From positions 219,475 to 283,474 of the forward strand of contig NZ_RSCL01000007.1 in assembly GCF_003991905.1 (NCBI RefSeq): a DNA stretch of 64,000 bases, in the 5' to 3' direction. This document shows, piece after piece, positions 8,694 to 28,067 of this stretch (positions within the stretch are counted from its first letter, which is position 1; every line of letters begins with the position of its first letter). Made by a program: the position numbers and the translations under genes. The notes beneath the pieces are model-generated. The model was not told where the DNA came from. It searched no databases and saw nothing but the letters and a program-made list of their open reading frames with translations. The DNA comes from Dulcicalothrix desertica PCC 7102. Lineage in GTDB: Bacteria; Cyanobacteriota; Cyanobacteriia; Cyanobacteriales; Nostocaceae.

Positions 8694-9143
8694 TTGATTT
8701 TGCTGTAACCACCGAGATAAATCGTCGGCGCCTGTAAAATCAAGTAAAGCTTCGCCAAGTGCCTCTATTTGATCAAGCGTTAAAGACTCAATTTGCGCGC
8801 GTAATGTTGGTGACAGTTGCCCTAAGCGCTTTTGCAGAAGTCGTAGAACCATTGATAGTTCTCCTTCAACTAGTCCTTAAAGTTTACCACGATCAAAGCC
8901 AATGCGTTCACCAGTTGTCATGTAAGGCATATTACGCTCCTGTTCAAATTGCTTAAAATCTTCCCAAAACTCATTTTCTAACCCTAATGGTAATATCATA
9001 ACCCAATCTATAAATCTATATAGGTTACGAATATCTTGTTCATCTAGTCCTTTATCGTAAAGCCTACGAATACGAGAAAACTTCCAGTATTTACGCTGTT
9101 CTGGATTTTTCTCTGTCTGCTGCGTTTTCAAATACTCATACAC
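8688..9143 (-). pseudogene. Truncated Rpn/DUF4351 gene with in-frame nonsense codon
   Basis: The fragment reads KYWKFSRIRRLYDKGL, then DEQDIRNLYRFIDWVMILP, closely related to the C-terminal block of the intact relative at 6.8-7.6 kb. It then meets a TAA at 8,877-8,879 and, in the same frame, resumes as GLVEGELSMVLRLLQKRLG and a DUF4351 tail ending DDLSRWLQQNQS. The nuclease core upstream of position 9,143 is missing. Thus it is a 5'-truncated remnant carrying one nonsense mutation (probably GAA to TAA). The reading as one decayed gene rather than two small genes is firm because both parts are in frame and collinear with the family. Confidence 0.8.
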
Positions 9144-9261
9144 CTTTACTAGTAGTGCAGATGTTCGGAGTTTATAATATTAGGCACCAGGTATGGAAGT
9201 ATGCTTATGTATTGATTTATAAAGGGTTTTGAGTATTATTTTTTACATTGATGGTATATGG

Positions 9262-9288
9262 GACAGGCAGGATGCCTGTTCCACAAGA
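9262..9288. repeat. GGCATCCTGCC-family intergenic palindrome
   Basis: GACAGGCAGGATGCCTGTTC followed by CACAAGA; a palindrome of the family also seen near 23.8, 28.1, 33.7, 37.8, 42.2 and 60.3 kb. The surrounding 9,144-9,437 holds no gene; TACAAT near 9,385 may be the -10 element for the following operon. Confidence 0.7.
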
Positions 9289-9437
9289 GATTTGAGTTAC
9301 AAATATAGTTATTACAAATATAGTTATGAGCTTGTTGACTTAAGTATCAACTATGAAATTTCATAAAAATCTGATTTTTACCTGGTACAATAGTGTTACT
9401 TCGCAGGTAGTGTAAGTGATTGGTGAGGTAGAGAAGC

Positions 9438-10337
9438 ATGTCACGTTATTGCTTAAAAACAATTAAATCTTTTGGATTTACTCAAAAAATGATTGACCAA
9501 TATTTAGGTCAACCGATAATTGCTAGCAACCCTCACTACAAATGCGCGGCGCCGATGAAGCTCTGGGAGCGTGACTTAGTAGATAAAGTACGAGAAGAGA
9601 AAAAAGATGAGTTAGAAACAAATTTGGCAAAACGTGCCAAAATGTTAGAAGCAAAGAATAAAAGAAAATCTGCAAAGCGTTCTTTATTAGGGTTTTATCT
9701 GGAAAATTACAGCTATTCACTTAATGAATATAATACATGTAGACTAATTGAAATAGCATTTAAAACTGGAGCAATTTCCATGTCAGCATTTAAATCTGAT
9801 GATTTAACCTTAAATTTAATTGCTGGATATTTGGCTGATGACGAAGAAGCACGCATCCGAAAAGAATTTGCAGCTTCGGATAAGGTTTATTCAATAGTTT
9901 ATACTCAGGTTAGAAAAGCTTTAATAGCATCTGACATCGTGTTTCAGTGTATTAGAAACGTACAAACTATTATTGAAGATTGGGAACGCGAAGAACAAGA
10001 GAAAGCTGAAAAAGAAAAACTTGAACGCTTACGTACAAAACTTATACAGCAGTCTTTCTTTGAGTACATACAACAAAATTTTGACACATTTCTACAAAAT
10101 GCAAGCATTAATAAAAATGCGATTCAAGAGCCTAGTATTAATGCTTCTAAAAAGAAGAAAAGTAAACACGCAAAACGCAATGTTAACTATGTGTGGTCAA
10201 GGATTCAAACTTATGCCAGAAGCCAAAATCCTAATTTTGCTGATACTCCTACCATTGCAAGTTGCGGTAAGTTTCACCAACGAATTGTAACATATATTAA
10301 TACAGTTTTACAAGAAAAGCAGTCAATAATTAAATAG
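9438..10337 (+). CDS. Uncharacterised protein in Thg1-like/kinase operon
   Basis: 299 residues, strongly basic, no membrane segment. N-terminal block FTQKMIDQYLGQPIIASNPH then YKCAAPMKL looks like a compact motif-bearing domain, followed by charged helices (50-80 and 180-205 are nearly all Lys/Glu/Arg/Ala and could form a coiled coil) and a Lys-rich segment (SKKKKSKHAKRN) near the C-terminus suited to nucleic-acid binding. I do not recognise the family. A GAGGTAGAG ribosome site precedes the ATG. It ends 6 bases before the P-loop kinase gene, which itself overlaps the Thg1-like gene, so it is the first gene of a three-gene operon and a plausible RNA-binding or substrate-recognition partner. 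That role is inference from position and charge only. Confidence 0.8.
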   Translation: MSRYCLKTIKSFGFTQKMIDQYLGQPIIASNPHYKCAAPMKLWERDLVDKVREEKKDELETNLAKRAKMLEAKNKRKSAKRSLLGFYLENYSYSLNEYNTCRLIEIAFKTGAISMSAFKSDDLTLNLIAGYLADDEEARIRKEFAASDKVYSIVYTQVRKALIASDIVFQCIRNVQTIIEDWEREEQEKAEKEKLERLRTKLIQQSFFEYIQQNFDTFLQNASINKNAIQEPSINASKKKKSKHAKRNVNYVWSRIQTYARSQNPNFADTPTIASCGKFHQRIVTYINTVLQEKQSIIK

Positions 10338-10343
10338 GCAATT

Positions 10344-10793
10344 ATGGAGGCAATTATATTTATAGGACTTCAAGGCGCCGGAAAATCAACTTTTTATCGT
10401 GAACGGTTATTAAATACCCACATGCGTATTAATTTGGATATGCTTAAAACAAGACACAGAGAACAAATATTTCTCAAAGCTTGTTTAGAAGCAAAACAAT
10501 CGTTCGTTATTGATAATACTAACCCAACGCTTGAAGAAAGAAGTCGTTATATATTGCCAGCCAAAAAAAATAGATTTAGAGTTGTAGCTTATTATTTTGA
10601 TTCTCATTTAGAAGAGTGTAAGCAACGAAATAACGAGCGTACAGGAAAAGAAATCATTCCTCTTGTTGGAATACTAAGTACATATAAAAGGTTAGTTTTA
10701 CCAACATGGGAAGAAGGATTTGATGCAATATACTCAATTAAAACAGTTAATAATTACTCGTTTATAGTAAAGGAATGCTTCCGTGAAATTTGA
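10344..10793 (+). CDS. P-loop polynucleotide-kinase-like protein
   Basis: 149 residues forming a minimal AAA_33-type kinase: Walker A GLQGAGKST (residues 8-16), NLDML after strand 2 and VIDNTNPTLEERSRY, the pattern found in polynucleotide kinases and related small P-loop kinases, followed by a lid helix with Arg residues (CKQRNNERTGKE). No phosphatase or ligase domain is attached. It most likely moves the ATP gamma-phosphate to a 5'-OH of RNA, although other small-molecule or zeta-toxin-like roles are possible for this fold. The stop overlaps the GTG start of the Thg1-like gene by 11 bases, implying coupled translation and shared function. It resembles, but is much shorter than, the kinase domain of the Pnkp protein at 25.5 kb. 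Confidence 0.85.
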   Translation: MEAIIFIGLQGAGKSTFYRERLLNTHMRINLDMLKTRHREQIFLKACLEAKQSFVIDNTNPTLEERSRYILPAKKNRFRVVAYYFDSHLEECKQRNNERTGKEIIPLVGILSTYKRLVLPTWEEGFDAIYSIKTVNNYSFIVKECFREI

Positions 10794-11538
10794 TGAACTC
10801 GATACAAGGATGCGCGTTTTTGAAACCGCACACGACCATTGTGTTCTACCAGGTATTTATATAGTTGCTCGGTTAGATGGACGCAGTTTTACTCGGTTAA
10901 CAAAAGAAGTACATAAATTTGAGGCGCCGTTCGACGAGAAAGTTCGCGATATGATGTTGGCAACAGTCGAGCATTTAATGAACTGTGGTATAGATATTAT
11001 TTACGGTTATACAGAAAGCGATGAAATATCTTTATTATTTGCATATGATGAAGTAAGCTTTGGACGCAAAACACGCAAGCTCAACTCAGTATTGGCAGGA
11101 GAAGCAAGCGCGCGGTTCTCATTGCTTTTAGGAGATATAGCTTGCTTTGATTGTCGCATATCACAACTACCTAATATTACCGAAGTCGTTAACTACTTTC
11201 GCTGGCGTAACGAAGACGCACATCGTAACGCACTCAACGCACATTGTTATTGGTGCTTACGTCGTGACGGTAAAAGCGCTAGACTCGCAACCAGCATGAT
11301 GGATGGATTATCAGTTGCAGATAAAAACGAACTCTTGTTTCAACATGGTATTAACTTTAATAACCTTCCCAACTGGCAAAAACGAGGAGTAGGACTTTAC
11401 TGGGAAGAATATCAAAAAGAAGGATATAACCCTAAAACAGGCGAAACAGTTACTGCAACCAGGCGCCGAATTAAGCGAGATTTAGAATTACCCATGAGAG
11501 ATGAGTATAGTAATTTTATTCAGAAGCTTACTAGCTAA
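10783..11538 (+). CDS. Thg1-like protein (3'-5' RNA polymerase / tRNA-His guanylyltransferase family)
   Basis: 251 residues. The Thg1 palm-domain metal-binding motifs are present: RLDGRSF (Asp32, Gly33) and YTESDEISLLF (Asp80, Glu81), with about 48 residues between the aspartates as in known Thg1 enzymes. NEDAHRNALNAHCYW and the Lys/Arg-rich C-terminal half also fit the family. Bacterial Thg1-like proteins add nucleotides to 5' ends in the 3'-to-5' direction, using the opposite strand as template, and repair 5'-truncated tRNAs. Translation starts at GTG (10,783) with AGGA eight bases upstream, inside the last codons of the P-loop kinase gene. Linkage to a kinase able to provide 5'-phosphates supports RNA 5'-end repair rather than tRNA-His maturation. 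Family call is secure, substrate is inferred. Confidence 0.92.
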   Translation: MKFDELDTRMRVFETAHDHCVLPGIYIVARLDGRSFTRLTKEVHKFEAPFDEKVRDMMLATVEHLMNCGIDIIYGYTESDEISLLFAYDEVSFGRKTRKLNSVLAGEASARFSLLLGDIACFDCRISQLPNITEVVNYFRWRNEDAHRNALNAHCYWCLRRDGKSARLATSMMDGLSVADKNELLFQHGINFNNLPNWQKRGVGLYWEEYQKEGYNPKTGETVTATRRRIKRDLELPMRDEYSNFIQKLTS

Positions 11539-11679
11539 TTGTAGCACAGCCCGAAAAGCCTGTGCAGTGAGGTCGTTTTGTTTACCACAGGCACTTCACA
11601 GCTTGAGCTTGATTTTTTGTTACGGCGCCGTAAATGACTATAATATAAATGCATTATATATAAAAGTAGTATATTTTGT

Positions 11680-11976
11680 ATGAGCGACATAAACATCACA
11701 GTTCCAGATCTTGCTTCTCAATGGGAAAGTGAAGTAGAAGGAATGTCTTCTACTGTTCAAATGTCTCAGCATCCCGCTTACCAAGAAATTATTAGTATGG
11801 GGAATCAAATATTAGCATTATTGCTGAGAGAGTTAAAAAATAACCCTCTTTACTGGTTATCAGCATTATCTCAAATTACAGGTGAAAATCCTATAAAACC
11901 TGAACAACGAGGAAAAATAAAACAGATGGCCTCCGCTTGGCTGGAATGGGGTAAAAATCAAGTTTACATAATTTAA
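11680..11976 (+). CDS. Small conserved protein of unknown function
   Basis: 98 residues. The pattern HPAYQEIISMGNQILALLL, then NNPLYWLSALSQITGENP and a closing AWLEWGKN is a compact all-helical domain that I recall as widespread among cyanobacterial and other bacterial hypothetical proteins, sometimes next to toxin-like genes; no enzyme motif is visible. The 5' region 11,630-11,680 is AT-rich with TATAAT at about 11,640, a plausible promoter. There is no second gene before the kinase at 12.4 kb, so any partner is absent here. Confidence 0.75.
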   Translation: MSDINITVPDLASQWESEVEGMSSTVQMSQHPAYQEIISMGNQILALLLRELKNNPLYWLSALSQITGENPIKPEQRGKIKQMASAWLEWGKNQVYII

Positions 11977-12385
11977 TCTAATGTATAAGTGACTTTCACC
12001 GATGAACGGCGCCTGATATCCATGACACTATGTAGTACTTTGTTATTATATTTTAACTAGAGAAAATTTAAAACTCCAATTTTCCGTACTTAATCAAACT
12101 TATGATTTATTGACTTAGATATGGGAATAAGGTTTTAAGGTTAGGGTATTATTTTCTGTCGTTAAAGGCGAAAAAAAGCGAAAAAGAAGCAAAATATACA
12201 AAAAAAACAGGTTTTATTGTGTAACCTGACTTACACGTGGAAGAAATATGTAGGCGCCTACTCTCAAATTTGTTTACATTGTTTGAGATGATACTACAAC
12301 ATCATAAAATTTGTTGAAACTGCTGATAATCGCAGCCTTTTAATGGGAATACTTAACTTATAGAAGAGTATAAGTATAAGTTACT
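11977..12385. other. Intergenic region without a gene
   Basis: 409 bases, AT-rich, no open frame worth calling. It holds two GGCGCC palindromes (about 12,009 and 12,254) and a purine-rich tract with repeated GCGAAAAA near 12,170. Presumably it carries the promoter of the large kinase gene, but I see no clear -35/-10 pair. Confidence 0.5.
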
Positions 12386-15300
12386 ATGACAAAATTATTA
12401 GATATAAAAGATAAAGTGATTGGCTATCACATTACAGAAAAAATCTACTCAGGTAGCAAAACCTTAGTTTATCGAGGTATTAGAGAAAAAGATCGACAAT
12501 CGGTCATTCTTAAACTAATGGCGACTGAATACCCTACCTTCAGTGAAATTACCCAGTTCCGCAATCAATACACCATAGCTAAAAGCCTCGACCTTCCTGG
12601 CATAGTCAAACCTTTAAGTATAGAAAATTATCGCAATGGCTATGCCCTAGTCATGGAAGACTTTGGTGGCATTTCCCTCGCAGATTGGCAACTGCAAGAT
12701 CAGGGAATGGAGAATAATGCTATTTCTTTAAGTCAATTTTTTCCCATTGCCATTGAAATTGTCTCTATTTTGGAGGGACTGCACCGTTATCGAGTCATCC
12801 ATAAAGACATTAAACCCGCCAATATTCTAATTAACCCAAGCACTGGTGAGGTAAAAATCATTGACTTTAGTCTTGCCACCCTATTACCGAGAGAAATTCA
12901 ATTCCTCACTAATCCTAACGTTTTAGAAGGGACGCTCGCTTACATTTCCCCCGAACAAACGGGTCGGATGAATCGAGGTATCGACTATCGCAGCGACTTT
13001 TATTCTTTGGGTGTTACCTTTTTTGAACTCCTGACAGGGCAGTTACCCTTCACCGCTACTGACCCAATAGAATTAGTTTATTCTCATATTGCAAAACGAC
13101 CACTAAAAGCTAGCGATATTAACGCCAATATTCCCCCGGTTTTGTCTGACATTGTTACCAAGTTGATGGCAAAAAATGCCGAAGACCGTTATCAAAGTAC
13201 ACATGGCTTAAAGTATGACTTGTCCATGTGCCGTGACCAATGGCAAACTGTGAACAAAACTGGGAACATTGGCGCCTTTGAGTTGGGAGTACGAGATGTA
13301 TCAGACCGTTTCCTGATTCCTGAAAAACTTTATGGGCGCCAACATGAAGTTGAAACCCTACTTGCTGCTTTCGAGCGTGTAACAGGTGGGACAACAGAAA
13401 TGATGTTAGTTGCGGGTTTCTCTGGAATTGGTAAAACTGCCGTGGTCAACGAAGTCCATAAACCCATCGCGCGGCAGCGTAGTTACTTCATTAAAGGAAA
13501 ATTCGACCAGTTCCAGCGTGATATTCCCTTATCCGCGTTAGTACAAGCGCTTCGGGATTTAATTGGGCAATTGCTCAGTGAAACTGATACCCAAATTCAA
13601 CATTGGAAAACTAAAATTTTGTCGGCATTGGGAGAACAAGCGGCTGTAATTACTGATATTTTGCCCGAACTTGAACAGATTATTGGTAAACAACCAGAAA
13701 TTAGCGAACTTTCTGGCAGTGCGGCTCAAAATCGCTTTAACTTATTGTTTCAGAGATTTATTCAGGTTTTTACTACTAAAGAGCATCCCCTTGTTATCTT
13801 TATAGATGACTTGCAATGGGCAGACGCAGCTTCTTTAAAACTCATCGAATTATTGATGAGTCAAACCAACGAAACTGCAAGGGGTTTGTTGCTAATTGGT
13901 GCATATCGGGATAATGAAGTATCAAAAGCACATCCGCTTTATTTAACAATACAAGAAATTGAAAAAGCGGGAGCAACCATTAATCACATCACTTTAAAAC
14001 CCCTAAATCAAAGTGAATTAAATAATTTGATAGCTGATACCCTACGGTGTGAAGAAACACTTGCTGTACCTCTTACGCAAATAGTGTTTGCAAGAACCAA
14101 TGGAAATCCCTTCTTTGCTACTCAACTACTTACTTCTTTATATCAAGATGGCATTATTAGATTTAGCTTTGATGTTGGATCTTGGCAGTATGATATTGCT
14201 GAAGTACAGGCAATAGCTCTTACAGATGATGTCGTCGAGTTTATGGCAATTCAATTAAAAAAATTGCCAGAACTTACTCAACAAGTTTTAATGCTGGCAG
14301 CTTGTATTGGTAACGAATTTGACTTACAGACTCTCGCTACAGTATATAAAAAATCTGTAGTAGACACAGCATCAGATATATGGAAAGCTTTACAAGAAGG
14401 GTTAGTTGTACCTCAAACTAACATTTACAAGTTATTTCAACATGGTGATGGTCAGAAAGATAGCTTTGAAAGTAAAGACTCTAAAGAATTATCAGCAAGG
14501 AATTTGCAAACTCCTAAATACAAATTTATCCATGACCGGGTACAGCAAGCTGCCTATTCTCTGATTCCCGAAGACCAACAAAAGGCAATTCACTTAGAAA
14601 TTGGGCTATTACTGTTGAATAATACCCCGGTTGCAGAACGGGAAGAAAATATTTTTCAGATTGTTAATCATTGTAATATTGCAGTTGAATTAATTGCAGA
14701 TCAAACTAAGTATGATGAGCTAGCCCAGATGAATTTGCTAGCTGGACGTAAGGCTTTAGCATCAACAGCTTATCCCGCTGCCTTAAGGTATTTAACTACA
14801 GGAATCGAGCTACTTACTCCGGATAGTTGGGTTCAGGAATATGATTTATCTCTAGCTTTGTATGAGACAGCAGCAGAGGCAGCATACTTGGCTGGCGAAT
14901 TTGAACAAATGGAAGGATTTGTTGAAGTAGTGTTGGCTCAGGCTAAAACATTACTAGAGAAAGTAAAAGTTCATGAAGTAAAAATTCAGGCTTACGGGGC
15001 GCAAAACAAAGCACTGGAAGCTGTCAATATCGCGCTAGCATTTTTGAAGTTATTGGGTGTTGAGTTTCCTGAGAATCCTAGCCAGTCAGATATGCAGCTC
15101 GCAATGGCAGAAGTAGCATCAAACATGAATGGGAGACATATTGAGGACTTAATTAATTTGCCAAAGATGATACATGCTGACAAATTGGCAATGATGCGTA
15201 TTCTATCTAGTATTAATCCTTTTACCTATCAAGCAGTTCCTGAACTATTCTCCCTTAATGTCCTTAAACAGATTAATTTATCGTTGAGATATGGTAATGC

Positions 15301-17956
15301 TCCGTTATCTGCCCTTGCCTACGTCACCTACGGGCTAATTCTCAACGCGGTAGTAGGAGACATCGAATCTGGCTATCAATTTGGTAAGCTAGCTATAAAT
15401 CTTTTGCGTGAGTTCCAAATGAAAGAAGTTGATGTAAAGGTTATTGCAACATTTAATCCATATATCAGATCTTGGAAGGAGCATACAAAGGAAGTATTAA
15501 AACCTGTATTAGAAGCTTATTCGACTGGATTAGAAACAGGAAATTTGGAATATGCTAGCTATTGTCTTTACACCTATTGCTACGCTTCATACTTCATTGG
15601 TAGAGAGTTGATAGAACTAAAATTAACAATGGCAAGTTACAGCAGTGCTATCTCTCAGATGAATCAAGAAAGAGCATTTCATTGGAATAGTATCTATAGA
15701 CAATTAGTCTGTAACCTGCTTGGAGACGTAGAAGACCCCTGCCGTTTAATCGGTGAAGCTTATGATGAGGATAAAATGCTACCACTTCTCTTTGAAGGCA
15801 AAGATAGAGTTGGGCTTTTATATTTAAATTTCAGCAAATTACATCTGTGTTACCTATTTCAAGACTTTTCACAGGCAGTAGAACATGCTACTCAGGCAGA
15901 AAAGTATTTAGATGGCGGGATAGGAAATATTGTTGTTCCTCTTATCTATTTTTACGAATCTCTTGCTAGGCTAGCACTGTATCCTGACGCATCCCAGACT
16001 CAGCAAAATTATATTCTCAATAAAATATTAACAAATCAGGAAAAGATTCAGAAATGGGCAGATTATGCACCAATGAATTATTTACATAAATATTATCTTG
16101 TCGAAGCAGAAAAGCATCGTGTTATTGGTAAATTTTTCGAGGCTATAGAATTATATGATCGTGCTATCTCTCTCGCCAAAGAAAATGAGTATATTAATGA
16201 AGAAGCTCTCGCTAACGAACTTGCAGCTAATTTTTATCTAGAATTGGGTAAACAAAACATTGCTCAAACTTACTTAACTAATGCCTATTATTGTTACAGT
16301 CGTTGGGGAGCGAAAGCCAAAGTTACAGATTTAGCAAACCGCTATACTCAATTACTTGCTCCCATTCTTGAGCAAGAAAAACTTAGCCCCCATCCTAGCC
16401 ATAAAACTACTTCTAATAGCAAATCTCTATCCACCCTCAGCAATCACCATACTATTATTGGATCAAAGACAAGCATTTCTGACTCTCTGGATTTAGCCGC
16501 ACTCCTGAGAGTATCTCAAGCACTTTCGGGAGAAATTGAGCTTGAACAACTGGTTTCCACTTTAATAAAAGTTGTTATAGAAAATGCTTGCGCCTCTAAA
16601 TGTGCTTTAATTTTAAGCAAAGGTAATAACTCAAATTTAACAATCGCCGCAGTCAGTTCTAGTTCAACCACAAAGTTCCCTTCAATTTCCCTAGAGTTGA
16701 GCGATGATGTTCCCATTACTTTAGTGAATTACGTCAAACGCACTTTACAAATATTAGTAATCGATGATGCAAAAACTGACACATTTTTAGTAAACGATCG
16801 CTACATTATCCATCAACAACCGTGTAGCCTTTTGTGCATCCCAATTATTAATCAAGGTAAATTGCTCGGAATTTTTTACCTAGAAAATAATCTGACTACG
16901 GGAGCGTTTACAAATAATCGGCTAGAAGTACTCCAACTCCTTACCACGCAAGCTGCAATATCCTTAGAGAATGCCATTCTTTACAGAAATTTAGCTGAAG
17001 CTAATGAAAAATTAATAGGATATAACCATACCCTAGAGGAAATGGTAGAGAAGAGAACGCAAGAACTTAACGATAAAAATCAAAGTTTGCAACAAACCCT
17101 AAGAGATTTACAACGTACCCAAAGCCAATTAATTCAAAGTGAAAAAATGTCTTCTCTAGGGCAAATGGTCGCTGGCATTGCCCATGAAATCAATAATCCG
17201 ATCAACTTTATTCACGGGAATATTCAATATACTAGTAGGTATGTGCAAGATTTACTGAATTTGATAAATATTTATCAACAAGAATACCCCAACCCTTCCC
17301 CTATACTTAAAGAACAAGTTGAGGAAATTGACATTAATTTTATATTACAAGACTTGCCCAAGATTCTAGATTCCATGAATATGGGGACTTCACGCATCCG
17401 TAATATTGTATTAGGCTTACGAAACTTCTCCCGTCTTGATGAATCAGAAATGAAGCCTATAGATATTCATGAAGGAATTGACAACACCTTGATGATTTTG
17501 CAGCATCGACTGAAAAAACAAAGTGAGCGGTCTGAGATTACAGTTATTAAAAAATACGAACAACTGCCAAAAGTTAATTGCTATGCAGGTCAACTTAATC
17601 AGGCATTTATGAATATTCTTAGTAATGCAATTGATGCTTTGGAAGAGGGAATGAGGACTAAAAAATGGGGAATAGAGAATAGTCAACCTCAAACTCCTAT
17701 AATTAGGATTTGCACTAAGCTAGTAAACAACCGTACAGTGAGAATTTTAATTGCTGATAACGGTTGTGGTATGACAGAAGCAGTCCAACAGAAAATTTTT
17801 GACCCATTTTTCACTACTAAACCAGTTGGAGGAGGTACAGGCTTGGGGTTATCGATTAGCTATCAAGTTGTAGTAGATAAACATAAAGGTCAGTTAATCT
17901 GTAATTCTACGCCAGGAGCGGGAACTGAGTTTGTGATTGAAATACCTGTGCAGTAG
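12386..17956 (+). CDS. Giant Ser/Thr kinase-ATPase-GAF-histidine kinase fusion (HstK type)
   Basis: 1,856 residues. N-terminal eukaryotic-type protein kinase (about 12-280) with [10 protein letters not shown] (catalytic loop) and IIDFSLA (DFG variant); an AAA/MalT-like predicted ATPase from about 316 with Walker [10 protein letters not shown] and Walker [12 protein letters not shown]; a long helical TPR-like region (about 700-1,320); a GAF domain (about 1,370-1,530); a coiled coil; and a HisKA/HATPase module with [12 protein letters not shown] (His1600) and GTGLGLSI. Proteins with this order are a hallmark of heterocystous cyanobacteria (HstK family) and integrate Ser/Thr and His phosphorylation. 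There is no receiver domain, so a separate regulator must exist. Two GGCGCC palindromes lie in the first 950 bases and none in the remaining 4.6 kb. A 30-bp palindrome follows the stop and faces the convergent P450 gene. Confidence 0.92.
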
Positions 17957-18003
17957 TGGTTTATGTAACTAATTCCGTGCGGTTGAATAAAAATCAAAAC
18001 CTT

Positions 18004-18033
18004 TGTAGAGACGCGATAAGGAGCGTCTCTACA
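18004..18033. terminator. TGTAGAGACG...CGTCTCTACA hairpin between convergent genes
   Basis: TGTAGAGACGC and GCGTCTCTACA arms around an eight-base loop region, followed by TTT. It belongs to a family also found at 26,787, 30,603 and 36,758. Position between the converging kinase and P450 genes suggests bidirectional termination. Confidence 0.65.
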
Positions 18034-18073
18034 TTTCCTAGAATTAATAATATGAAACACTACTGTTATAAAA

Positions 18074-19456
18074 TTAATATGCGTATGTAGTTGCCATATA
18101 CAATGGAGATGCGCGCCGCCCTCTAATTACCATCTTTACTCCACTAGCAGGTGCTAAAGTAAAACCTCTACGCTGAGGCCGCTCTGGTCGATTACCAGCC
18201 AGTGCAAGTTGATAGTTTGATAGGATTGTTGCCAATACTAGCTTTATTTCAAACTGCCCTAAAGTCTCACCAATACATCGACGTACACCACCACCAAAGG
18301 GCAAAAATTCGTAGGGAGAAAATTGTCTTTCTAAAAAGCGCTCTGGTTTAAACAGTTTTGGTTCAGGATATAAATCCTTACGGTGATGAGTGAGGTAAAT
18401 ACTAGCCAGCAGTACCGTCCCTGGTTCTAAAGAATGTCCTAGTAATTCTACTGGCTCTTGCACTAACCTGGGGAACGAGAACATCAAAATTGGATGAATT
18501 CGCATCGATTCATTACATACTGCTGTGAGATATGGCAATCGATAAATGCTCATAGGGTCTGGGGAATCACCGAGTGTACTCAGTTCTTGGAGCAGTTTTT
18601 CGTGGACTAGCGGCTTTTGGTGAATCCAGTACAATGCCCAAGCTATTACCGTTGCTGTAGATTCATATCCACCAAGTAGTAAGGTCATCAACTGATCGCG
18701 CAATTCCACATCTGTCATACCTTGACCCGCTTCATCCTTCGCTAACATTAGCAAGGAAAGGATATCAATTCGATCTGGGTCAGGTTTTTCCCGACGTTCA
18801 GCAATTTCTGCGTAAAGCAATTCATCTATTTGCTGCCGACTACGCAGAAATTTTCCCCAAGGACTCCAAGCGCAGAAATCCTGTTGCAAAAATGAGAAGA
18901 AGAATAAACTAGAAGTGAGTGGAGACCTAAAATAATCTAAGAGTAAGGGCAGTAAATGCTTGAGTTGTTGATATCTTTTTCCCTCATATAAGCCAAAGAT
19001 AGCTTCTAAGATAACTTGCAGGGATATATCCTGTGTGACATTACGGCATGAAAAAACATTATTTAGTGGCAATTGCCTAAAAGTTTTTTCAGTGAGGCTA
19101 CATATTAGCTGACCGTAAGCTTTCATCCGGTCTCCGTGGAATGAGGGCATCACCAGTTGTCGTTGCCGTTTATGCCGATCGCCATCTATTGAGAGGAATG
19201 AATAGTTACCTAGAAAGGGTTTCAAAATTTTATTTAACTTACCGGCTGCTACAAACTTTTTTCTATCATTAGTGAAAATTTCCTTGATTGCTTCCGGATG
19301 GTTTACAAATACCACAGTATCCCCAAAACCAACCAACTTACCAGTAAAAATGTCGGGATATTGCTGGGCGGCGCTTTCCATATATCCAATAGGATCAGCA
19401 ACCCATTGAAACCTCTGTATCAAAGGTGAAGTTTTGAGAGGGTTAGGTAGTTTCAT
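18074..19456 (-). CDS. Cytochrome P450 (CYP110-like), partner of the sesquiterpene synthase
   Basis: 460 residues. Heme-binding loop FLPFGGGVRRCIG with axial Cys394; K-helix ExxR as NESMRIHP; I-helix LLGGYESTATVIAW in place of the usual AGxxT; ERFLERQF meander. No membrane anchor is evident, as usual for bacterial P450s. It is the second gene of a pair: the sesquiterpene synthase ends 47 bases upstream on the same strand. In Nostoc PCC 7120 a CYP110-family P450 next to a germacrene A synthase oxidises the terpene, and the arrangement here is the same, so this enzyme probably hydroxylates or otherwise oxidises the hydrocarbon made by its neighbour, using ferredoxin-type electron donors encoded elsewhere. 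The CYP110 subfamily call is by resemblance and linkage. Confidence 0.9.
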   Translation of the reverse strand: MKLPNPLKTSPLIQRFQWVADPIGYMESAAQQYPDIFTGKLVGFGDTVVFVNHPEAIKEIFTNDRKKFVAAGKLNKILKPFLGNYSFLSIDGDRHKRQRQLVMPSFHGDRMKAYGQLICSLTEKTFRQLPLNNVFSCRNVTQDISLQVILEAIFGLYEGKRYQQLKHLLPLLLDYFRSPLTSSLFFFSFLQQDFCAWSPWGKFLRSRQQIDELLYAEIAERREKPDPDRIDILSLLMLAKDEAGQGMTDVELRDQLMTLLLGGYESTATVIAWALYWIHQKPLVHEKLLQELSTLGDSPDPMSIYRLPYLTAVCNESMRIHPILMFSFPRLVQEPVELLGHSLEPGTVLLASIYLTHHRKDLYPEPKLFKPERFLERQFSPYEFLPFGGGVRRCIGETLGQFEIKLVLATILSNYQLALAGNRPERPQRRGFTLAPASGVKMVIRGRRASPLYMATTYAY

Positions 19457-19503
19457 TTGAGTTATTATTGCAAAGTTTTCCTAAAAGCGTTCTCATCTTC
19501 AAC

Positions 19504-20475
19504 TTAAGCCGCCATTAGCTCTAGCTTTTCTAAAGACTGATACCGAGCAGAATCAGCATACCAATTCAGGTTGGCACTTATCCAGGTATTTAATCCTAAT
19601 ACATACTTTTCTAGTTCAGCATCTAGCTCTTCCCCAAAATGTGGAATAGACGCTTCTAAATCTATCATCGCTTGTACCTCTTGATTGTGCATTTCTACAC
19701 AACGCTTAATTGCTTCTTCTAAAGGCAATCGCTGTTGATAGTGAAAGACCAATACTAAATTGTGAAAATCACCACTTGCCATTTCCCTAGATGCCGAGAA
19801 TATATCATTACACCAAGAAATGATATTACTTGTCATCTCTCCTAATTTGCTCACAATAGTCTGCTCTTTAACAACGTCGGGAATCGTCAAATGGTTGAAA
19901 AAATCAATCCACGCTAGAACAAGATCCCCGGCTACACTTAACCTACGCATTTTAGTATACGTATTAACATCAGGTACAATCCCCTGTAAACGGTTGAATG
20001 CTTCTAGCATACAACCGTGAAAGTAGCCCTCAAAACTGCGGACAACACGATCAAAAGATATTGGGTCACCTATTTGAAGCATACGCTTCCGTATATCACT
20101 TAAGGCATGACTAAGAGGTATGTCTTGACTCGTAGGTTCTATTCCATTGAATATTTCTAGAAATCTCTTTTGATAATCCTTTAAAATTTCAGGTTGTTTA
20201 CCTAACTCTGACATATCGCATTGATCGTCCCAAATAAACAGCCAACTCAACCAGTCATTTGCAATCTTCAGTTCTTCAAGTTGGCAATGAGGATAGGCAT
20301 ATACGGTTAGCAAAAAAAAATTTGACTTGCTAAAACGCTGATAGACTCGTGATTCATTTTCTAAAAGGTTGAAGCGAAGTACCCATTCCAACGCATATTC
20401 TTCCAGAACATCTACATGCTTATTTATCTGCGATGGAAATGGGCAGTATAAATCGGGGAAAATGATTTTTTCCAT
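19504..20475 (-). CDS. Class I sesquiterpene synthase
   Basis: 323 residues from the ATG at 20,475; an in-frame TTG at 20,490 would add MIELF but seems a poorer start. The aspartate-rich metal motif is WDDQCD (Asp83, Asp84) and the NSE triad is NDIFSASRE (Asn223, Ser227, Glu231); RRLSVAGDL and the RYQSLE C-terminal block are also typical of bacterial terpene cyclases. The protein should ionise and cyclise farnesyl diphosphate with Mg2+; the DDxxD-like motif plus length argue against geosmin synthase, which is twice as long. It is transcribed ahead of the P450 gene, the pair forming a small terpenoid pathway. Which skeleton is made cannot be read from sequence. The pair lies in a stretch almost free of GGCGCC palindromes, which hints at transfer. 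Confidence 0.9.
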   Translation of the reverse strand: MEKIIFPDLYCPFPSQINKHVDVLEEYALEWVLRFNLLENESRVYQRFSKSNFFLLTVYAYPHCQLEELKIANDWLSWLFIWDDQCDMSELGKQPEILKDYQKRFLEIFNGIEPTSQDIPLSHALSDIRKRMLQIGDPISFDRVVRSFEGYFHGCMLEAFNRLQGIVPDVNTYTKMRRLSVAGDLVLAWIDFFNHLTIPDVVKEQTIVSKLGEMTSNIISWCNDIFSASREMASGDFHNLVLVFHYQQRLPLEEAIKRCVEMHNQEVQAMIDLEASIPHFGEELDAELEKYVLGLNTWISANLNWYADSARYQSLEKLELMAA

Positions 20476-20490
20476 AAATAACTCTATCAA

Positions 20491-21120
20491 TCAATGGGAA
20501 CAGTTAGAAAGACACAAACTACAGTACACAGAAGAAGCTGACCTCTAAATCCTCATTGAGCTATTACTGATACACCAATTTTGCTACAGTGCGAGAATGA
20601 TATTTATTAACACTGCAAGTGGTATTTCAATATATCGCTTAGGCTTAAAAATTTAGTCCGTGCAAGCATTATTTTATGTTTAATTAAAATTTTTAACCGT
20701 ATTTATCAGTAATTAATCAGGTGTGTACAAGCAATTAACTACTATGTAAAAAATAATACATTTGCTTGCTTGGTTTTTTAAAGTTGTTGTATTTTAGCTA
20801 TGAGCTTACAACCTTTACTTGGATTAAGTTGAAGCAAGTTAGCTTTCCAAGTATGGACGGAAATTGCTAAACACTATACACTTTAATATTAATTTTAATA
20901 CTTTATATCAATGCTATGATTGAAATATATTTATGCTGATAACCATATTTTTATACTCAAAGCCTACGTAATTATTCTTAAATATCAAGAAATTGTGACA
21001 TTACTGAGATTATTAGGCGCCAATCATGTTATTCAAAAACTCGTATTAATCTCTGAATATGGCTTTGAGGTCTAAAAAACTAAGGTATAAGCTTTAGTAA
21101 CAAATATTACTAGTAAGCAA
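20491..21120. other. AT-rich intergenic region
   Basis: About 630 bases upstream of the terpene synthase without a supportable gene. It holds one GGCGCC palindrome at about 21,015, the only one between 13.34 and 24.20 kb, and presumably the promoter of the terpene operon. Confidence 0.45.
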
Positions 21121-21222
21121 ATAAGCCTCAAGTATCAAGCAAATATCATTCTAATAACTGATGACAAATTGACACAGTTAAAGTTTGATTTAAAGGTGAT
21201 AATAGTACAAACATACGAGTAA
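21121..21222 (+). pseudogene. Possible C-terminal remnant of a PIN-domain protein
   Basis: In one frame the sequence reads SLKYQANIILITDDKLTQL, then KFDLKVIIVQTYE and a stop at 21,220-21,222. The pattern 'A-N-I-x-L-T-(N/D)-D ... L-x-V-I-V-L' is the C-terminal strand-helix-strand of PIN nucleases. No start or N-terminal half can be joined in frame. Similarity is short, so this is tentative. Confidence 0.35.
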
Positions 21223-21824: not shown

Positions 21825-22039
21825 GGTCATGCCCAGACTCAACGTAGAACTGTTCATTTTACGTTAGGCATAAAACCCTTTTAGTCCGCTTACAGGTCAA
21901 GACTTAATGAGGTTAGCCAGCCTCAAGCGTCGATCAAGGATGAAAACGATTTTTCCCATTGTCGTTGAACCGAAGACTAACAACAAGCCTGTAAGCAGTG
22001 TCGAGGCACACTTTACCCATATGGAGACTAGTCACAACC
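21825..22039 (+). ncRNA. Putative omega RNA / HEARO RNA
   Basis: The roughly 200 bases immediately upstream of iscB have no gene but several possible helices: CGCTTACAGG (about 21,888) with CCTGTAAGC (about 21,990) closes a long-range stem; inside it GAGG-TTAGCCA-GCCTC and AACGA-x10-TCGTT form local hairpins; upstream ACGTA/TACGT and GGG-TCAT-GCCC can pair. IscB proteins use an RNA encoded just 5' of their gene, known from comparative genomics as HEARO. The guide would lie at the 5' end, near the element boundary around 21,785-21,830. Ends are approximate and the helices were found by eye. Confidence 0.55.
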
Positions 22040-24001: not shown

Positions 24002-25384
24002 ATGCTATTAACAATTACAACAACACATACACCAGCTACAGACCTGGGTTATTTATTGCATAAGCACCCTGACAAGTGTCAGTCGTTCTCGCTTTCTTTT
24101 GGACAAGCGCATGTTTTTTACCCAGAAGCTAGCGATACTCTCTGTACTGCTGCGCTACTGTTGGATATTGACGCTGTAAAATTGGTGCGTAGTAAAGGCG
24201 CCACTCTCGAACAGTATGTTAATGATAGACCTTATGTAGCTTCGTCGTTTTTTAGCGTTGCGATGTCGCAGGTGTTTGGGACTGCGCTTGGTGGTAGATG
24301 TAAAGACCGTCCTGAACTTGTGCAAACCCCAATACCTTTAACCGCGAAAATAAGCGTTTTACCTTGTCGTGGGGGTGAAGAGTTTCTACGCGAATTATTT
24401 GAACCGTTGGGTTATACCATTAGCGCACAAAATCACCAGCTTGATGAAAAATTTCCAGATTGGGGCGCCAGTAAATATTACACCGTAGAGTTACAGCACA
24501 CTTTGCCTTTATCTGAATTACTCAGTCATCTTTATGTACTTATTCCTGTTCTTGATGACGAAAAGCATTATTGGGTAGGAGAAGACGAAGTTGAGAAACT
24601 TCTGCGTCATGGAGAAGGTTGGTTAAGTTCGCACCCAGCAAAAGAGCAAATAACTCGTCGTTACCTGAAACGTCAAGGTCGTTTAACTCGTGCAGCTTTA
24701 GCGCAACTCGTGGAACAAGAAGACCCTGACCCAGATAGCAGCGAAGAAGAACACGCACAAGAAGAAGCAGCAGTAGAGAAACCGCTTTCCCTCAATAAAC
24801 AGCGAATGTTAACTGTTGTTGATACCCTTAAACAAAACAACCTCAAAACCGTCATAGACTTGGGTTGCGGAGAGGGAACTTTGCTGAGATATTTAATTAA
24901 AGATGCCTTTTTCGACAAAATCACAGGTGTTGATGTATCGTATCGCGCATTAGGCATCGCTAAAGAACGCATCGAAAAACTGCGGTTAGCACGCAACCAA
25001 TGGGACAAAATACAACTTTTTCAAAGCGCATTAACATATCAAGACAAACGTTTCAAAGGATATGATGCAGTCACACTCATCGAAGTTATCGAGCATCTAG
25101 ACTTACCGCGTTTAAGCTCTCTATCACGGGTTGTCTTCGAGTTTACCCATCCCAAAACAGTAATAGTAACCACACCAAACATAGAATATAACGTCAAATT
25201 TGAAACATTACCCGCTGGAAAACTGCGACATAAAGACCACCGTTTTGAGTGGACAAGAGAAGAATTTCAAAGTTGGGCAAATCAAGTTGCACAAAGATTT
25301 AATTACACAGTCGAGTTTCAACCTATTGGAGATAATGACAATTTAGTTGGGGCGCCGACACAAATGGCTGTTTTTAAGTGCTGA
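24002..25384 (+). CDS. hen1: Bacterial Hen1: 3'-terminal RNA ribose 2'-O-methyltransferase
   Basis: 460 residues, close to the 465 of the Clostridium thermocellum enzyme as I recall. The N-terminal half matches the bacterial Hen1-specific domain that contacts Pnkp (TPATDLGYLLHKHPDK; SFSLSFGQAHVFYPEA); an acidic linker (about 240-262) follows; the C-terminal half is the methyltransferase with SAM motif VIDLGCGEGTLL and the Hen1 metal cluster EVIEHLD (Glu361, Glu364, His365) plus His413 in RHKDHRFEW. It methylates the 2'-OH of the 3' end of cleaved RNA before Pnkp seals the break, which protects the repaired junction from renewed cleavage by ribotoxins. The pnkp gene follows 139 bases downstream, with a repeat between them. 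Confidence 0.95.
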   Translation: MLLTITTTHTPATDLGYLLHKHPDKCQSFSLSFGQAHVFYPEASDTLCTAALLLDIDAVKLVRSKGATLEQYVNDRPYVASSFFSVAMSQVFGTALGGRCKDRPELVQTPIPLTAKISVLPCRGGEEFLRELFEPLGYTISAQNHQLDEKFPDWGASKYYTVELQHTLPLSELLSHLYVLIPVLDDEKHYWVGEDEVEKLLRHGEGWLSSHPAKEQITRRYLKRQGRLTRAALAQLVEQEDPDPDSSEEEHAQEEAAVEKPLSLNKQRMLTVVDTLKQNNLKTVIDLGCGEGTLLRYLIKDAFFDKITGVDVSYRALGIAKERIEKLRLARNQWDKIQLFQSALTYQDKRFKGYDAVTLIEVIEHLDLPRLSSLSRVVFEFTHPKTVIVTTPNIEYNVKFETLPAGKLRHKDHRFEWTREEFQSWANQVAQRFNYTVEFQPIGDNDNLVGAPTQMAVFKC

Positions 25385-25497
25385 TCCCCCCTAACCCCCC
25401 TTGATAAGGGGGGAACAAGAGTGGGTTCTAGCCTTTAAAAAAGTAAATAAGCCAATTCTTAGCCCCCCCTTATTAAGGGGGGGTTGGGGGGATCAAC
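25385..25497. repeat. Two GATCCCCCC/CCTTATTAAGG repeat copies
   Basis: ATCCCCCCTAACCCCCCTTG at 25,384 and CCCCTTATTAAGGGGG at about 25,464 followed by TTGGGGGGATC; the two copies face each other as an inverted repeat. A third copy interrupts an SDR pseudogene at 32.2 kb. The repeat adds a spurious N-terminal extension to the pnkp frame and could attenuate hen1-pnkp read-through. Confidence 0.8.
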
Positions 25498-25523
25498 TTC
25501 GCGTTCATTACACATATATATAT

Positions 25524-28067
25524 ATGAAAATAACAATCCCTGAACTTTCACTAGTAATACTCATCGGCGCCTCTGGTTCTGGTAAATCAACCTTCGCGCG
25601 CAAAAACTTCCAGCAATACGAAATCCTCTCCTCAGACTTTTGTCGAGGACTAGTATCTGACGACGAAAACAACCAAAAAGCATCACACGACGCATTCGAC
25701 GTACTACACTACATCGCCAACAAAAGACTAGCAGCAGGGAAACTAACAGTTATAGATGCCACCAACGTCCAGCCCGAAGACCGTAAAGAATATATAAAAA
25801 TGGCAAGGGAATTTCATGTTTTACCTGTAGCCATAGTCCTCAACCTCCCCGAACAACTTTGTCACGAACGTAACCAACAGCGTCCAGACAGACAATTTGG
25901 CGCCCATGTAGTCAAGCGTCATACACTAGCATTGCGTCGAAGCTTACGCGGACTAGAAAAAGAAGGTTTTCGTTACGTTTACGTTTTAAATTCCTTAGAA
26001 GATATCAATAATATAGAAATAGAACGTCAACCATTATGGAATAACCGTAAACACGAACGTGGGCCGTTTGACATTATCGGCGATATCCACGGTTGCTGCG
26101 ATGAACTAGAACTTCTACTAGAAAAACTAGGCTATCAAAAGGGAGATAACTATTATCACCCAGAAGGACGCAAAGTAGTATTTCTTGGAGACTTAGTAGA
26201 TAGAGGCGCCCGTATTTTAGATACAGTAAACTTAGTTCGCAACATGGTTAACTCAGGTACTGCCTTATGCGTTCCAGGCAACCATGAACATAAACTACTG
26301 CGAAAACTGCGCGGTAAAAACGTTAAAGTTAATCATGGGTTAGAGCAAACCTTAGCAGAAATAGACGCATTACCCGAAGATACCCGTGAACCATATATTA
26401 AAGAACTACGGGAATTTATCGACTCATTAGTAAGTCACTATGTTTTAGATGGTGGACAATTAGTTGTTGCACATGCAGGTATGAAGCAGGCAATGCAAGG
26501 ACGAGGAAGTGGCGCCGTGCGAGAGTTTGCATTGTATGGTGAGACTACAGGGGAAATAGACGAATTTGGTTTACCAGTACGTTTCAACTGGGCAGGTGAG
26601 TATCGAGGTGATGCAATGGTTGTTTATGGGCATACACCAGTACCAGAAGCCGAATGGTTGAATAACACAATAGATATAGATACAGGTTGTGTATTCGGTG
26701 GTAAATTAACAGCTTTACGCTATCCCGAAAAAGAATTAGTTAGCGTACCTGCTGCCAAAGTTTATTGCGAACCTGTTAAACCATTGGTAGAGACGTTACA
26801 TGTAACGTCTCTACAGTCGGAAAATGATGATGTGTTGAATGTGGATGATGTGTTGGGTAAACGCATTATTAACGTGCGCTTGCAAAATAATATAACGATT
26901 CGCGAAGAAAATGCCATTGCTGCACTCGAAGTCATGAGTAGGTTTGCCGCTAACCCCAAGTGGTTAATTTACTTACCTCCTACAATGTCACCTGTAGAGA
27001 CTTCAAAGTTACCTGGATATTTGGAACATCCCCAAGAAGCTTTTGCTTATTATCAAAATCAAGGTATTTCAGAGGTAGTCTGTGAAGAAAAACATATGGG
27101 TTCGCGTGCTGTTGTCATAGTTTGTCGTGATGAAGATGCAGTAAGAAAGCGTTTTGGTCTCGTTAACGAAGGTATTGGTATTTGTTACACTCGTACAGGC
27201 AGAAAGTTTTTTAATGATGATGCTTTAGAAGCTGAGTTTATTGCCAAAATAAATCAAGCTTTATCTACAAGTAACTTTTGGGAAACATTTAATACCGACT
27301 GGGTATGTCTCGACTGTGAACTAATGCCTTGGTCAGCAAAAGCTCAAGCGTTATTACAAAATCAGTATGCTCCCGTTGGTGTATCATCACGCACCGGACT
27401 TGGTAATGCCGTTGCGATGTTGCAAAAAGCTAGCGCGCGAGGAGTTGACGTTGGCGCCCAATTAACTGCATTTACACAGCGCGCCCAAATGGCTAATTTA
27501 TATATTGACGCTTACCGTCGCTACTGCTGGGATGTTAACGATATTTCTGATATCAAACTGGCGCCGTTTCATATCCTAGCAACAGAAGGCGCCGTACATA
27601 CCGACAAAACCCATCGTTGGCACATGGAACAAATTGCCAAAATTGCCTTATGCGACCCTATTTTATTAGCTACCCATTATAAAGTCATTGATTTGAATGA
27701 CCCTAGTAGCCAAGCTGAAGGTATTAATTGGTGGGAGCAGATGACGGGTGCAGGTGGGGAAGGTATGGTTGTTAAACCTATGGACTATATAGTTAAAGGT
27801 AATCGTGGTATTATTCAACCTGCTGTTAAATGCCGTGGACAAGAATATTTACGGATTATTTATGGCGCCGAATATACTAGTCTAGAAAACTTAAATCGTC
27901 TGCGTCAAAGAGGATTATCGCATAAACGTTCGTTAGCAATGCGCGAATTTGCACTTGGTGTAGAATCGTTAGAAAGGTTCGTCTCCCATCAACCATTACG
28001 AAGAATACACGAGTGCGTATTCGGTATTTTAGCCCTAGAAAGTGAACCCGTAGACCCCAGATTGTAA
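25524..28067 (+). CDS. pnkp: Pnkp: polynucleotide kinase-phosphatase-ligase for RNA repair
   Basis: 847 residues from ATG 25,524; the frame opens further upstream but that part is a dispersed repeat, and starting at MKITIPEL puts the Walker A lysine and serine at residues 21-22, the same numbers as in the C. thermocellum enzyme. Domains: 5'-kinase (1-165, GASGSGKST; IDATNVQPEDR), metallophosphatase (about 175-395, GDIHGC, GDLVDRG, GNHEHKL, GHTPVP) and adenylyltransferase/ligase (about 455-847, nucleophile Lys523 in EEKHMGSR). It heals 5'-OH and 2',3'-cyclic-phosphate ends and, bound to Hen1, seals them. Residues 422-431, between phosphatase and ligase, are encoded by an inserted 28-bp palindrome that keeps the frame. 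Three to four GGCGCC sites per kb mark it as native. Confidence 0.95.
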   Translation: MKITIPELSLVILIGASGSGKSTFARKNFQQYEILSSDFCRGLVSDDENNQKASHDAFDVLHYIANKRLAAGKLTVIDATNVQPEDRKEYIKMAREFHVLPVAIVLNLPEQLCHERNQQRPDRQFGAHVVKRHTLALRRSLRGLEKEGFRYVYVLNSLEDINNIEIERQPLWNNRKHERGPFDIIGDIHGCCDELELLLEKLGYQKGDNYYHPEGRKVVFLGDLVDRGARILDTVNLVRNMVNSGTALCVPGNHEHKLLRKLRGKNVKVNHGLEQTLAEIDALPEDTREPYIKELREFIDSLVSHYVLDGGQLVVAHAGMKQAMQGRGSGAVREFALYGETTGEIDEFGLPVRFNWAGEYRGDAMVVYGHTPVPEAEWLNNTIDIDTGCVFGGKLTALRYPEKELVSVPAAKVYCEPVKPLVETLHVTSLQSENDDVLNVDDVLGKRIINVRLQNNITIREENAIAALEVMSRFAANPKWLIYLPPTMSPVETSKLPGYLEHPQEAFAYYQNQGISEVVCEEKHMGSRAVVIVCRDEDAVRKRFGLVNEGIGICYTRTGRKFFNDDALEAEFIAKINQALSTSNFWETFNTDWVCLDCELMPWSAKAQALLQNQYAPVGVSSRTGLGNAVAMLQKASARGVDVGAQLTAFTQRAQMANLYIDAYRRYCWDVNDISDIKLAPFHILATEGAVHTDKTHRWHMEQIAKIALCDPILLATHYKVIDLNDPSSQAEGINWWEQMTGAGGEGMVVKPMDYIVKGNRGIIQPAVKCRGQEYLRIIYGAEYTSLENLNRLRQRGLSHKRSLAMREFALGVESLERFVSHQPLRRIHECVFGILALESEPVDPRL
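26787..26814. repeat. Perfect 28-bp palindrome inserted in frame in pnkp
   Basis: GTAGAGACGTTACA joined to its exact reverse complement. The identical 28 bases occur intergenically at 36,758-36,785, and degenerate relatives at 18,004 and 30,603. In pnkp it reads VETLHVTSL and lies in the phosphatase-ligase linker. Confidence 0.95.

What the first reader, a model, noticed from the sequence alone, without database searches (positions are those of the whole stretch)
9438..11538. Candidate RNA 5'-end repair module: unknown basic protein, P-loop polynucleotide kinase and Thg1-like polymerase in one operon
The three genes are spaced by 6 and -11 bases. The Thg1-like protein has both metal-binding motifs (RLDGRSF, YTESDE), the kinase a Walker A and the IDNTNP motif of polynucleotide kinases. 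Known: bacterial Thg1-like proteins rebuild 5' ends in the 3'-5' direction and need an activatable 5' end. Inference: the small kinase prepares 5'-OH ends for the polymerase, and the basic first protein (motif NPHYKCAAPMKL) recognises the RNA. I know of no described system with this trio.
Basis: partly seen in the sequence, partly recalled or inferred. Interest (0 to 1): 0.8.

Follow-up and report, generated by a model that had tools for sequence, protein, structure and literature searches.

The report
RNA end-repair gene pair, already predicted
A cyanobacterium carries a kinase gene and a backwards-building RNA polymerase gene locked together as a likely RNA end-repair pair, a pairing predicted in 2010; some relatives keep the pair inside a known toxin-damage repair operon, while the third gene is a local addition of unknown role.

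Summary
The three ORFs, spacings and motifs are as described. Genes 2 and 3 are a real, widely conserved unit: a small kinase, closest to polynucleotide kinases by sequence and predicted fold, overlaps a Thg1-like gene in 64 of 80 loci from many phyla, by exactly 11 bases in 52. But this pair, and the idea that the kinase makes the 5'-phosphate for Thg1, was published in 2010 (PMC2904730). Gene 1 is not a constant partner: it precedes the pair only in one Calothrix clade, and its two clear homologs in other genera lie elsewhere. In 5 of 22 relatives the order is Hen1-kinase-Thg1-Pnkp, so the pair lies inside the known Pnkp/Hen1 RNA-repair operon. The window keeps Hen1 (24002-25384) and Pnkp (25524-28067) 12.5 kb downstream, and one relative shows remnants of both genes around an intact pair. 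The pair also persists without them. Best reading: it re-phosphorylates and rebuilds 5' ends of broken RNA, often alongside Pnkp/Hen1. Biochemistry is untested.

The parts
9438..10337 (+). gene 1 ('A'): basic 299-aa protein, mostly helical in a low-confidence model, with an N-terminal ~60-aa domain (GFT...NPxYxxAAPMKLW); clade-specific neighbour, role unknown
10344..10793 (+). [quoted passage not shown]
   Evidence: Pfam AAA_33; profile hits mammalian PNKP 4e-20, C. thermocellum Pnkp kinase 2.3e-10, T4 Pnk 2.7e-5; AlphaFold model pLDDT 93.1, best PDB fold match PNKP 1yj5, E 1.4e-13
10783..11538 (+). Thg1-like protein (TLP), GTG start, 11-base overlap with the kinase gene
   Evidence: Pfam Thg1 + Thg1C; PDB Thg1/TLP hits, best 5axk 5.6e-43; D32, D80, E81 each in 79 of 80 loci; HINNLYN in 0 of 80
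12305..21189 (.). block between the pair and Hen1: 1856-aa Ser/Thr plus histidine kinase, then two ORFs that look like a P450 and a terpene synthase (read from sequence, not tested); aligns in G004, G002 and G005
24002..25384 (+). Hen1, 3'-terminal RNA ribose 2'-O-methyltransferase
   Evidence: Pfam Hen1_L 3.2e-119 plus methyltransferase; 738.5 bits against NCBIfam TIGR04074, cut-off 340
25524..28067 (+). Pnkp: kinase + metallophosphatase + RNA ligase (adenylyltransferase) domains
   Evidence: Pfam PNKP_ligase 5.4e-185, AAA_33 1.1e-27, Metallophos 2.5e-13 (translated from 25521)

Best explanation
The kinase and the Thg1-like protein form a translationally coupled 5'-end repair pair. Proposed action: the kinase phosphorylates the 5'-OH left when a ribotoxin cuts RNA. 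The Thg1-like protein activates that 5'-phosphate and adds back lost nucleotides in the 3'-to-5' direction. Where Pnkp and Hen1 are present, as here, the product is then sealed by Pnkp, with Hen1 methylating the 3' end. Here an ancestral Hen1-kinase-Thg1-Pnkp operon was probably rearranged: Hen1-Pnkp now lie 12.5 kb downstream and gene 1 has taken the place before the kinase. Shown: the genes, families, catalytic motifs, conserved overlap and context. Inferred: RNA as substrate, order of reactions, co-operation with Pnkp/Hen1, the rearrangement. Gene 1's role is unknown; a nucleic-acid-binding or regulatory part is only a guess.
For: Pair: kinase directly upstream in 16 of 22 relatives and 64 of 80 loci, overlap -11 in 52 of 64; the two sets overlap. 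Kinase is PNK-like by profile and fold. Context: Hen1-kinase-Thg1-Pnkp in that order in 5 of 22 relatives, Hen1-Thg1 without the kinase in 2 more. Of the 80 loci, 49 have at least 3 kb upstream and 4.5 kb downstream; of these, 14 have Hen1 and 14 have Pnkp within 6 kb on the same strand. Genomes with Thg1 carry Hen1 over cut-off in 16 of 22, against 16 of 78 without (by genus 11 of 17 against 15 of 73, p 7e-4). RlaP, an RNA-repair nucleotidyltransferase (two proteins of L093 tested), is within 6 kb in 5 of 80. A Deinococcus plasmid has AAA ATPase-Thg1-(2 genes)-Hen1-nucleotidyltransferase-nucleotidyltransferase (both match RlaP by tblastn). History: the window's clade nests in a supported clade (99/94) with three Hen1/Pnkp-type loci. 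In L025 an intact pair is flanked by Hen1 and Pnkp fragments. The order pair...Hen1-Pnkp is kept in G002, G003, G004 and G005, 9.6-33 kb apart; in G006 the contigs break between.
Against: The pair outlives Hen1/Pnkp: 6 of 22 Thg1 genomes lack Hen1 over the cut-off, and 34 of 49 well-flanked loci show no Hen1, Pnkp, RlaP or RtcB within 6 kb (three of the 34 are Calothrix loci of this clade, where Hen1 and Pnkp lie farther off). The kinase is missing beside Thg1 in 6 of 22 and 16 of 80, so Thg1 can do without it. Pnkp has its own kinase domain, so a second kinase needs another reason. G057 (L065) has Hen1 and the kinase but no Thg1 in the 3 kb that follow. No biochemical data.
Confidence: 0.6

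Rival explanations
1. Stand-alone tRNA 5'-end quality control: the pair repairs 5'-truncated tRNAs at the acceptor end, independent of Pnkp/Hen1; the operon context is shared mobility or convenience.
For: A bacterial TLP activates 5'-truncated tRNA in vitro (PMC3701042, passages; that TLPs then complete the repair is recalled). The pair persists without Hen1/Pnkp and stays intact where both have decayed (L025). Thg1 has the lowest dN/dS of the three.
Against: Thg1 is patchy (22 of 100 relatives), unlike a housekeeping function. Co-occurrence with Hen1 holds when counted by genus. Of 63 tRNA genes checked in the own genome 5 show an acceptor-stem mismatch; the check picks the best pairing register and can hide a mismatch at position 1, so it is weak.
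Confidence: 0.25
2. One reading: gene 1 is the RNA-recognition subunit of a three-protein complex.
For: Constant 6-base spacing to the kinase and dN/dS of 0.14-0.27 within the Calothrix clade; basic protein.
Against: Absent beside the pair in 76 of 80 loci. Its homologs in two other genera are not beside the pair. No fold or family support.
Confidence: 0.1
3. The kinase acts on a small molecule, or the Thg1-like protein serves only to adenylylate 5' ends for ligation.
For: Weaker matches to seryl-tRNA(Sec) kinase and to 6-phosphofructo-2-kinase. The 2010 paper also offers ligation through a 5'-App end.
Against: The best sequence and fold matches are polynucleotide kinases; frequent neighbours are RNA-repair genes.
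Confidence: 0.1
4. Thg1 adds G-1 to tRNA-His, as in eukaryotes.
For: Family name only.
Against: Both tRNA-His genes found have an encoded G directly before position 1. The eukaryote-specific HINNLYN motif occurs in 0 of 80 loci and not in the window protein. 78 of 100 relatives have no Thg1 match.
Confidence: 0.02

Closest known systems
Bacterial polynucleotide kinase-Thg1 operon (Anantharaman, Iyer and Aravind 2010, PMC2904730; abstract, passages)
   Same: Same two families, same adjacency, same proposed division of labour.
   Different: The passages seen name RNA ligase and MACRO neighbours, not Hen1, Pnkp or a gene-1 homolog; 'cyanobacteria' occurs 0 times in the main text, and no held paper has both Thg1 and Hen1.
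Bacterial Pnkp/Hen1 and Pnkp1-Rnl-Hen1 RNA repair (PMC4411300; abstract and passages)
   Same: Hen1 and three-domain Pnkp are in the window; in some relatives they bracket the pair.
   Different: No Thg1 or extra kinase in the passages seen. Here Hen1-Pnkp are 12.5 kb from the pair.
Modular RNA repair systems reviewed by Burroughs and Aravind 2016 (PMC5062991; not held; content recalled only)
   Same: The recalled 'syntax' of ligase, nucleotidyltransferase, kinase, methylase and scaffold fits the neighbours seen here (RlaP, RtcB, SPFH).
   Different: Could not be checked; it may already describe the Hen1-kinase-Thg1-Pnkp arrangement.
Thg1-like proteins of bacteria (PMC3701042, PMC6471195; passages)
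   Same: Same family, without the eukaryotic HINNLYN motif.
   Different: The passages seen give in vitro activity on tRNA and no settled biological role for bacterial members.

Membership tests
Thg1/TLP family | Thg1 and Thg1C domains | tested here: met
   3.2e-32 and 4.5e-16, both over cut-off
Thg1/TLP family | catalytic metal-binding acids (roles recalled) | tested here: met
   D32, D80, E81 each in 79 of 80 loci; present in the window protein
Eukaryotic-type Thg1 | HINNLYN motif | tested here: not met
   0 of 80; window has HRNALNAHC there; motif named in PMC6471195
Thg1/TLP family | 3'-5' nucleotide addition | not testable with these tools
   needs an enzyme assay
Polynucleotide kinase family | P-loop, conserved Asp and Arg set, PNK-like fold | tested here: met
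   G13, K14, S15, D32, D57, N58, R95, R99 each in at least 59 of 64 (catalytic roles recalled); fold match to PNKP
Polynucleotide kinase family | phosphorylates 5'-OH RNA | not testable with these tools
   needs an enzyme assay
Bacterial PNK-Thg1 operon (2010) | kinase gene directly beside Thg1 | tested here: met
Pnkp/Hen1 RNA repair system | Hen1 and three-domain Pnkp as neighbours | tested here: met
   window 24002-28067
Pnkp/Hen1 RNA repair system | kinase-Thg1 pair in the same operon (asked here; not a defining feature of the known system) | tested here: not met
   12.5 kb apart in the window; met in 5 of 22 relatives

The most novel reading that the evidence does not exclude
Hen1-kinase-Thg1-Pnkp is a gap-filling RNA repair operon: it restores nucleotides lost at the 5' side of a ribotoxin break by 3'-to-5' synthesis before methylation and sealing, with RlaP doing the matching 3'-side job in loci such as those of planctomycetes. 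It would be a natural role of many bacterial Thg1-like proteins. In Calothrix a new partner, gene 1, has joined the pair.
Probability: 0.3. Interest if true: 0.75.

Novelty: new member of a known kind. Interest (0 to 1): 0.4.

Why it matters
The natural job of bacterial Thg1-like proteins is unsettled in the passages read. A conserved kinase-Thg1 unit inside the Pnkp/Hen1 operon of several cyanobacteria gives a direct test: does damage repair include rebuilding of missing nucleotides? No paper in the held open-access library contains both 'Thg1' and 'Hen1', nor 'Hen1', 'Pnkp' and 'Thg1'; the key 2016 review is not held, so absence from print is not shown.

Tried and rejected
tRNA-His G-1 addition: rejected. 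RloC, which cuts out the wobble nucleotide (PMC2610378, passages) and would leave a gap of the right kind: the AAA_13 family (that it covers RloC is recalled) has weak matches in 25 of 100 relatives and passes its cut-off in 1, a genome without a Thg1 match, so there is no link. tRNA 5' editing: 5 of 63 acceptor stems with a mismatch, one of them position 1 of a tRNA-Met, no pattern; the register search can hide position-1 mismatches. An earlier count with a fixed register was unreliable and is not used. Gene 1 as a mobile-element gene: no plasmid match at E 0.01; only its N-terminal part matches one phage protein of 203 aa and one viral contig. Gene 1 fold: mean pLDDT 54 from a 6-row alignment, no PDB match under 0.001. 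More gene 1 kin in 386 cyanobacterial genomes: the own copy and two partial weak hits (an even sample that evidently left out the genus mates, which would have matched). PADLOC: no hit for the three genes or Pnkp; Hen1 hits only a MADS methyltransferase model. Kinase in phages: no match at 1e-8; Thg1 in 100 phage and 14 plasmid records, all under 60% identity. Promoter scan 9000-12400: 16 sites against 12.5 expected, uninformative.

Full report
Observation. The three ORFs lie where stated with gaps of 6 and -11 bases, and the quoted motifs are present. Pfam assigns the kinase to AAA_33 and gene 3 to Thg1 plus Thg1C; gene 1 matches nothing above cut-off. Against four Calothrix copies dN/dS is well under 1 for all three.

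What the pair is. A profile of the kinase hits solved polynucleotide kinases first: mammalian PNKP 4e-20 and C. thermocellum Pnkp kinase 2.3e-10, then two fungal P-loop kinases (3e-8, 1e-7), seryl-tRNA(Sec) kinase 1.5e-5 and T4 Pnk 2.7e-5. Its AlphaFold model (pLDDT 93.1) matches PNKP best (1yj5, 1.4e-13). Gene 3 keeps the catalytic acids and lacks the eukaryotic HINNLYN motif, so it is a Thg1-like protein. The own genome has one Thg1 match and encodes G-1 in both tRNA-His genes found, so a tRNA-His role is not needed.

How conserved. Of 100 related genomes, the own one included, 22 have Thg1; the kinase is directly upstream in 16 of these 22. A scan of named genomes gave 456 relatives, of which the best 80 were kept; the kinase is directly upstream in 64 of 80, overlapping by 11 bases in 52, 4 in 6 and 14 in 6. 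The 80 span Cyanobacteriota, Planctomycetota, Myxococcota, Acidobacteriota, Lentisphaerota, Bacteroidota, Bacillota and others, but were picked by similarity to a cyanobacterial query and overlap the 22. Sixteen of 80 lack the kinase there.

Gene 1. It stands before the pair in 6 of 22 relatives, all one genus; the seventh genome of the genus has neither Thg1 nor gene 1. It is in 4 of 80 loci, all Calothrix. Homologs in G028 (62%) and G018 (33%) are on contigs other than those of the pair. In an even sample of 386 cyanobacterial genomes only the own copy and two partial weak hits appear. Its N-terminal ~60 residues recur in a 203-aa phage protein, a viral contig protein and an unrelated cyanobacterial protein (L150). 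It has no family, PDB or fold match and models poorly. So it looks like a real gene with clade-limited linkage and unknown function.

The missed context. In 5 of 22 relatives the order is Hen1-kinase-Thg1-Pnkp; two more have Hen1-Thg1 without the kinase. The Hen1 and Pnkp of L027 score 713 and 1439 bits against their NCBIfam models. Of the 80 loci, 49 have at least 3 kb upstream and 4.5 kb downstream; within 6 kb, 14 of 49 have Hen1, 14 Pnkp, 4 RlaP, 0 RtcB, and 15 have any of these (over all 80: 19, 17, 5, 1). Two RlaP proteins beside the pair in L093 were confirmed by Pfam. A Deinococcus taeanensis plasmid carries AAA ATPase-Thg1 and, two genes on, Hen1 and two nucleotidyltransferases; a Thiodictyon plasmid has Thg1 followed by a nucleotidyltransferase, without the kinase. 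Thg1-bearing genomes carry Hen1 over cut-off more often: 16 of 22 against 16 of 78; by genus 11 of 17 against 15 of 73, p 7e-4. The Pnkp ligase domain gives 17 of 22 against 18 of 78; by genus 12 of 17 against 17 of 73, p 4e-4. Relatedness is only partly controlled by counting genera, and the ligase count includes broken or short pieces in G035, G048 and G075.

In the window, Hen1 (24002-25384) and Pnkp (25524-28067) are present with all their domains. They are 12.5 kb from Thg1, behind a block that aligns in three genus mates (12305-21189). The same order is kept in G002, G004 and G005 (about 10 kb) and G003 (about 33 kb); in G006 the contigs break between. In the Thg1 tree the gene-1 clade (100/98) nests in a supported clade (99/94) with three Hen1/Pnkp-type loci (its bootstrap had not fully settled). 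In L025 an intact pair has Hen1 fragments directly upstream and Pnkp fragments directly downstream. The simplest history is an ancestral four-gene operon, later broken up; this is inference.

Mechanism. Pnkp/Hen1 repairs ribotoxin-cleaved RNA, and Hen1's 2'-O-methylation makes it resist re-cleavage (PMC4411300, abstract and passages). PMC2904730 states that characterised Thg1 enzymes use a phosphorylated 5' end and proposes that the neighbouring kinase supplies it. Adding 3'-to-5' synthesis to that operon suggests rebuilding of lost nucleotides before sealing. Against a strict dependence, the pair persists without Hen1/Pnkp (6 of 22 genomes lack Hen1 over cut-off; 34 of 49 flanked loci show none of the repair genes within 6 kb, three of them Calothrix loci of this clade), so it probably also works alone.

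Novelty. The pair and its proposed chemistry were in print in 2010. Searches for papers with Thg1 and Hen1, and with Hen1, Pnkp and Thg1, found none, but the library is open-access only and the key 2016 review is not held. I therefore file it as a new member of a known kind, with an interesting and testable context.

Noticed in passing
L182 2091-8834 (own genome, outside the window: G000:C2 about 248591-255333): A dense array of 28 ARAGORN tRNA genes in about 6.8 kb (one with an odd anticodon), only 2 with CCA in the best register; includes one of the two tRNA-His genes found.
   Followed up: partly
window 9438-11538 against L068 and L069: Synonymous divergence of Thg1 (dS about 0.32-0.33) is 2 to 6 times that of gene 1 and the kinase (0.06-0.14) between the same genomes, a hint of recombination within the cluster.
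   Followed up: no
window 21998-23351: RRXRR plus HNH protein (IscB-like; name recalled) whose first part may lie in another frame (21998-22324 overlaps 22248-23351), so possibly broken.
   Followed up: no
L043 8876-9616 (G026): A Thg1 homolog whose RLDGRSF motif reads RLKVKNL; no kinase beside it. Probably inactive as a polymerase.
   Followed up: no
L031, upstream of the kinase (G085): An intein-bearing RtcB family protein directly upstream of a divergent kinase-Thg1 pair.
   Followed up: partly
L126 and L138, upstream of the kinase (Acaryochloris MAGs): Related proteins directly upstream of the pair in both; the L126 one is an SPFH/Band-7 protein by Pfam, the L138 one was not tested.
   Followed up: partly
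L065 8351-10501 (G057): Hen1 followed by the small kinase with no Thg1 in the next 3 kb; no Thg1 match in that genome.
   Followed up: partly
L025 7821-9710 (G035): Fragments of Hen1 and Pnkp on both sides of an intact kinase-Thg1 pair.
   Followed up: yes
window 11680-11976: 98-aa ORF after Thg1 whose 91% homolog in G003 lies about 1.1 kb before Hen1 instead, a trace of local rearrangement.
   Followed up: no
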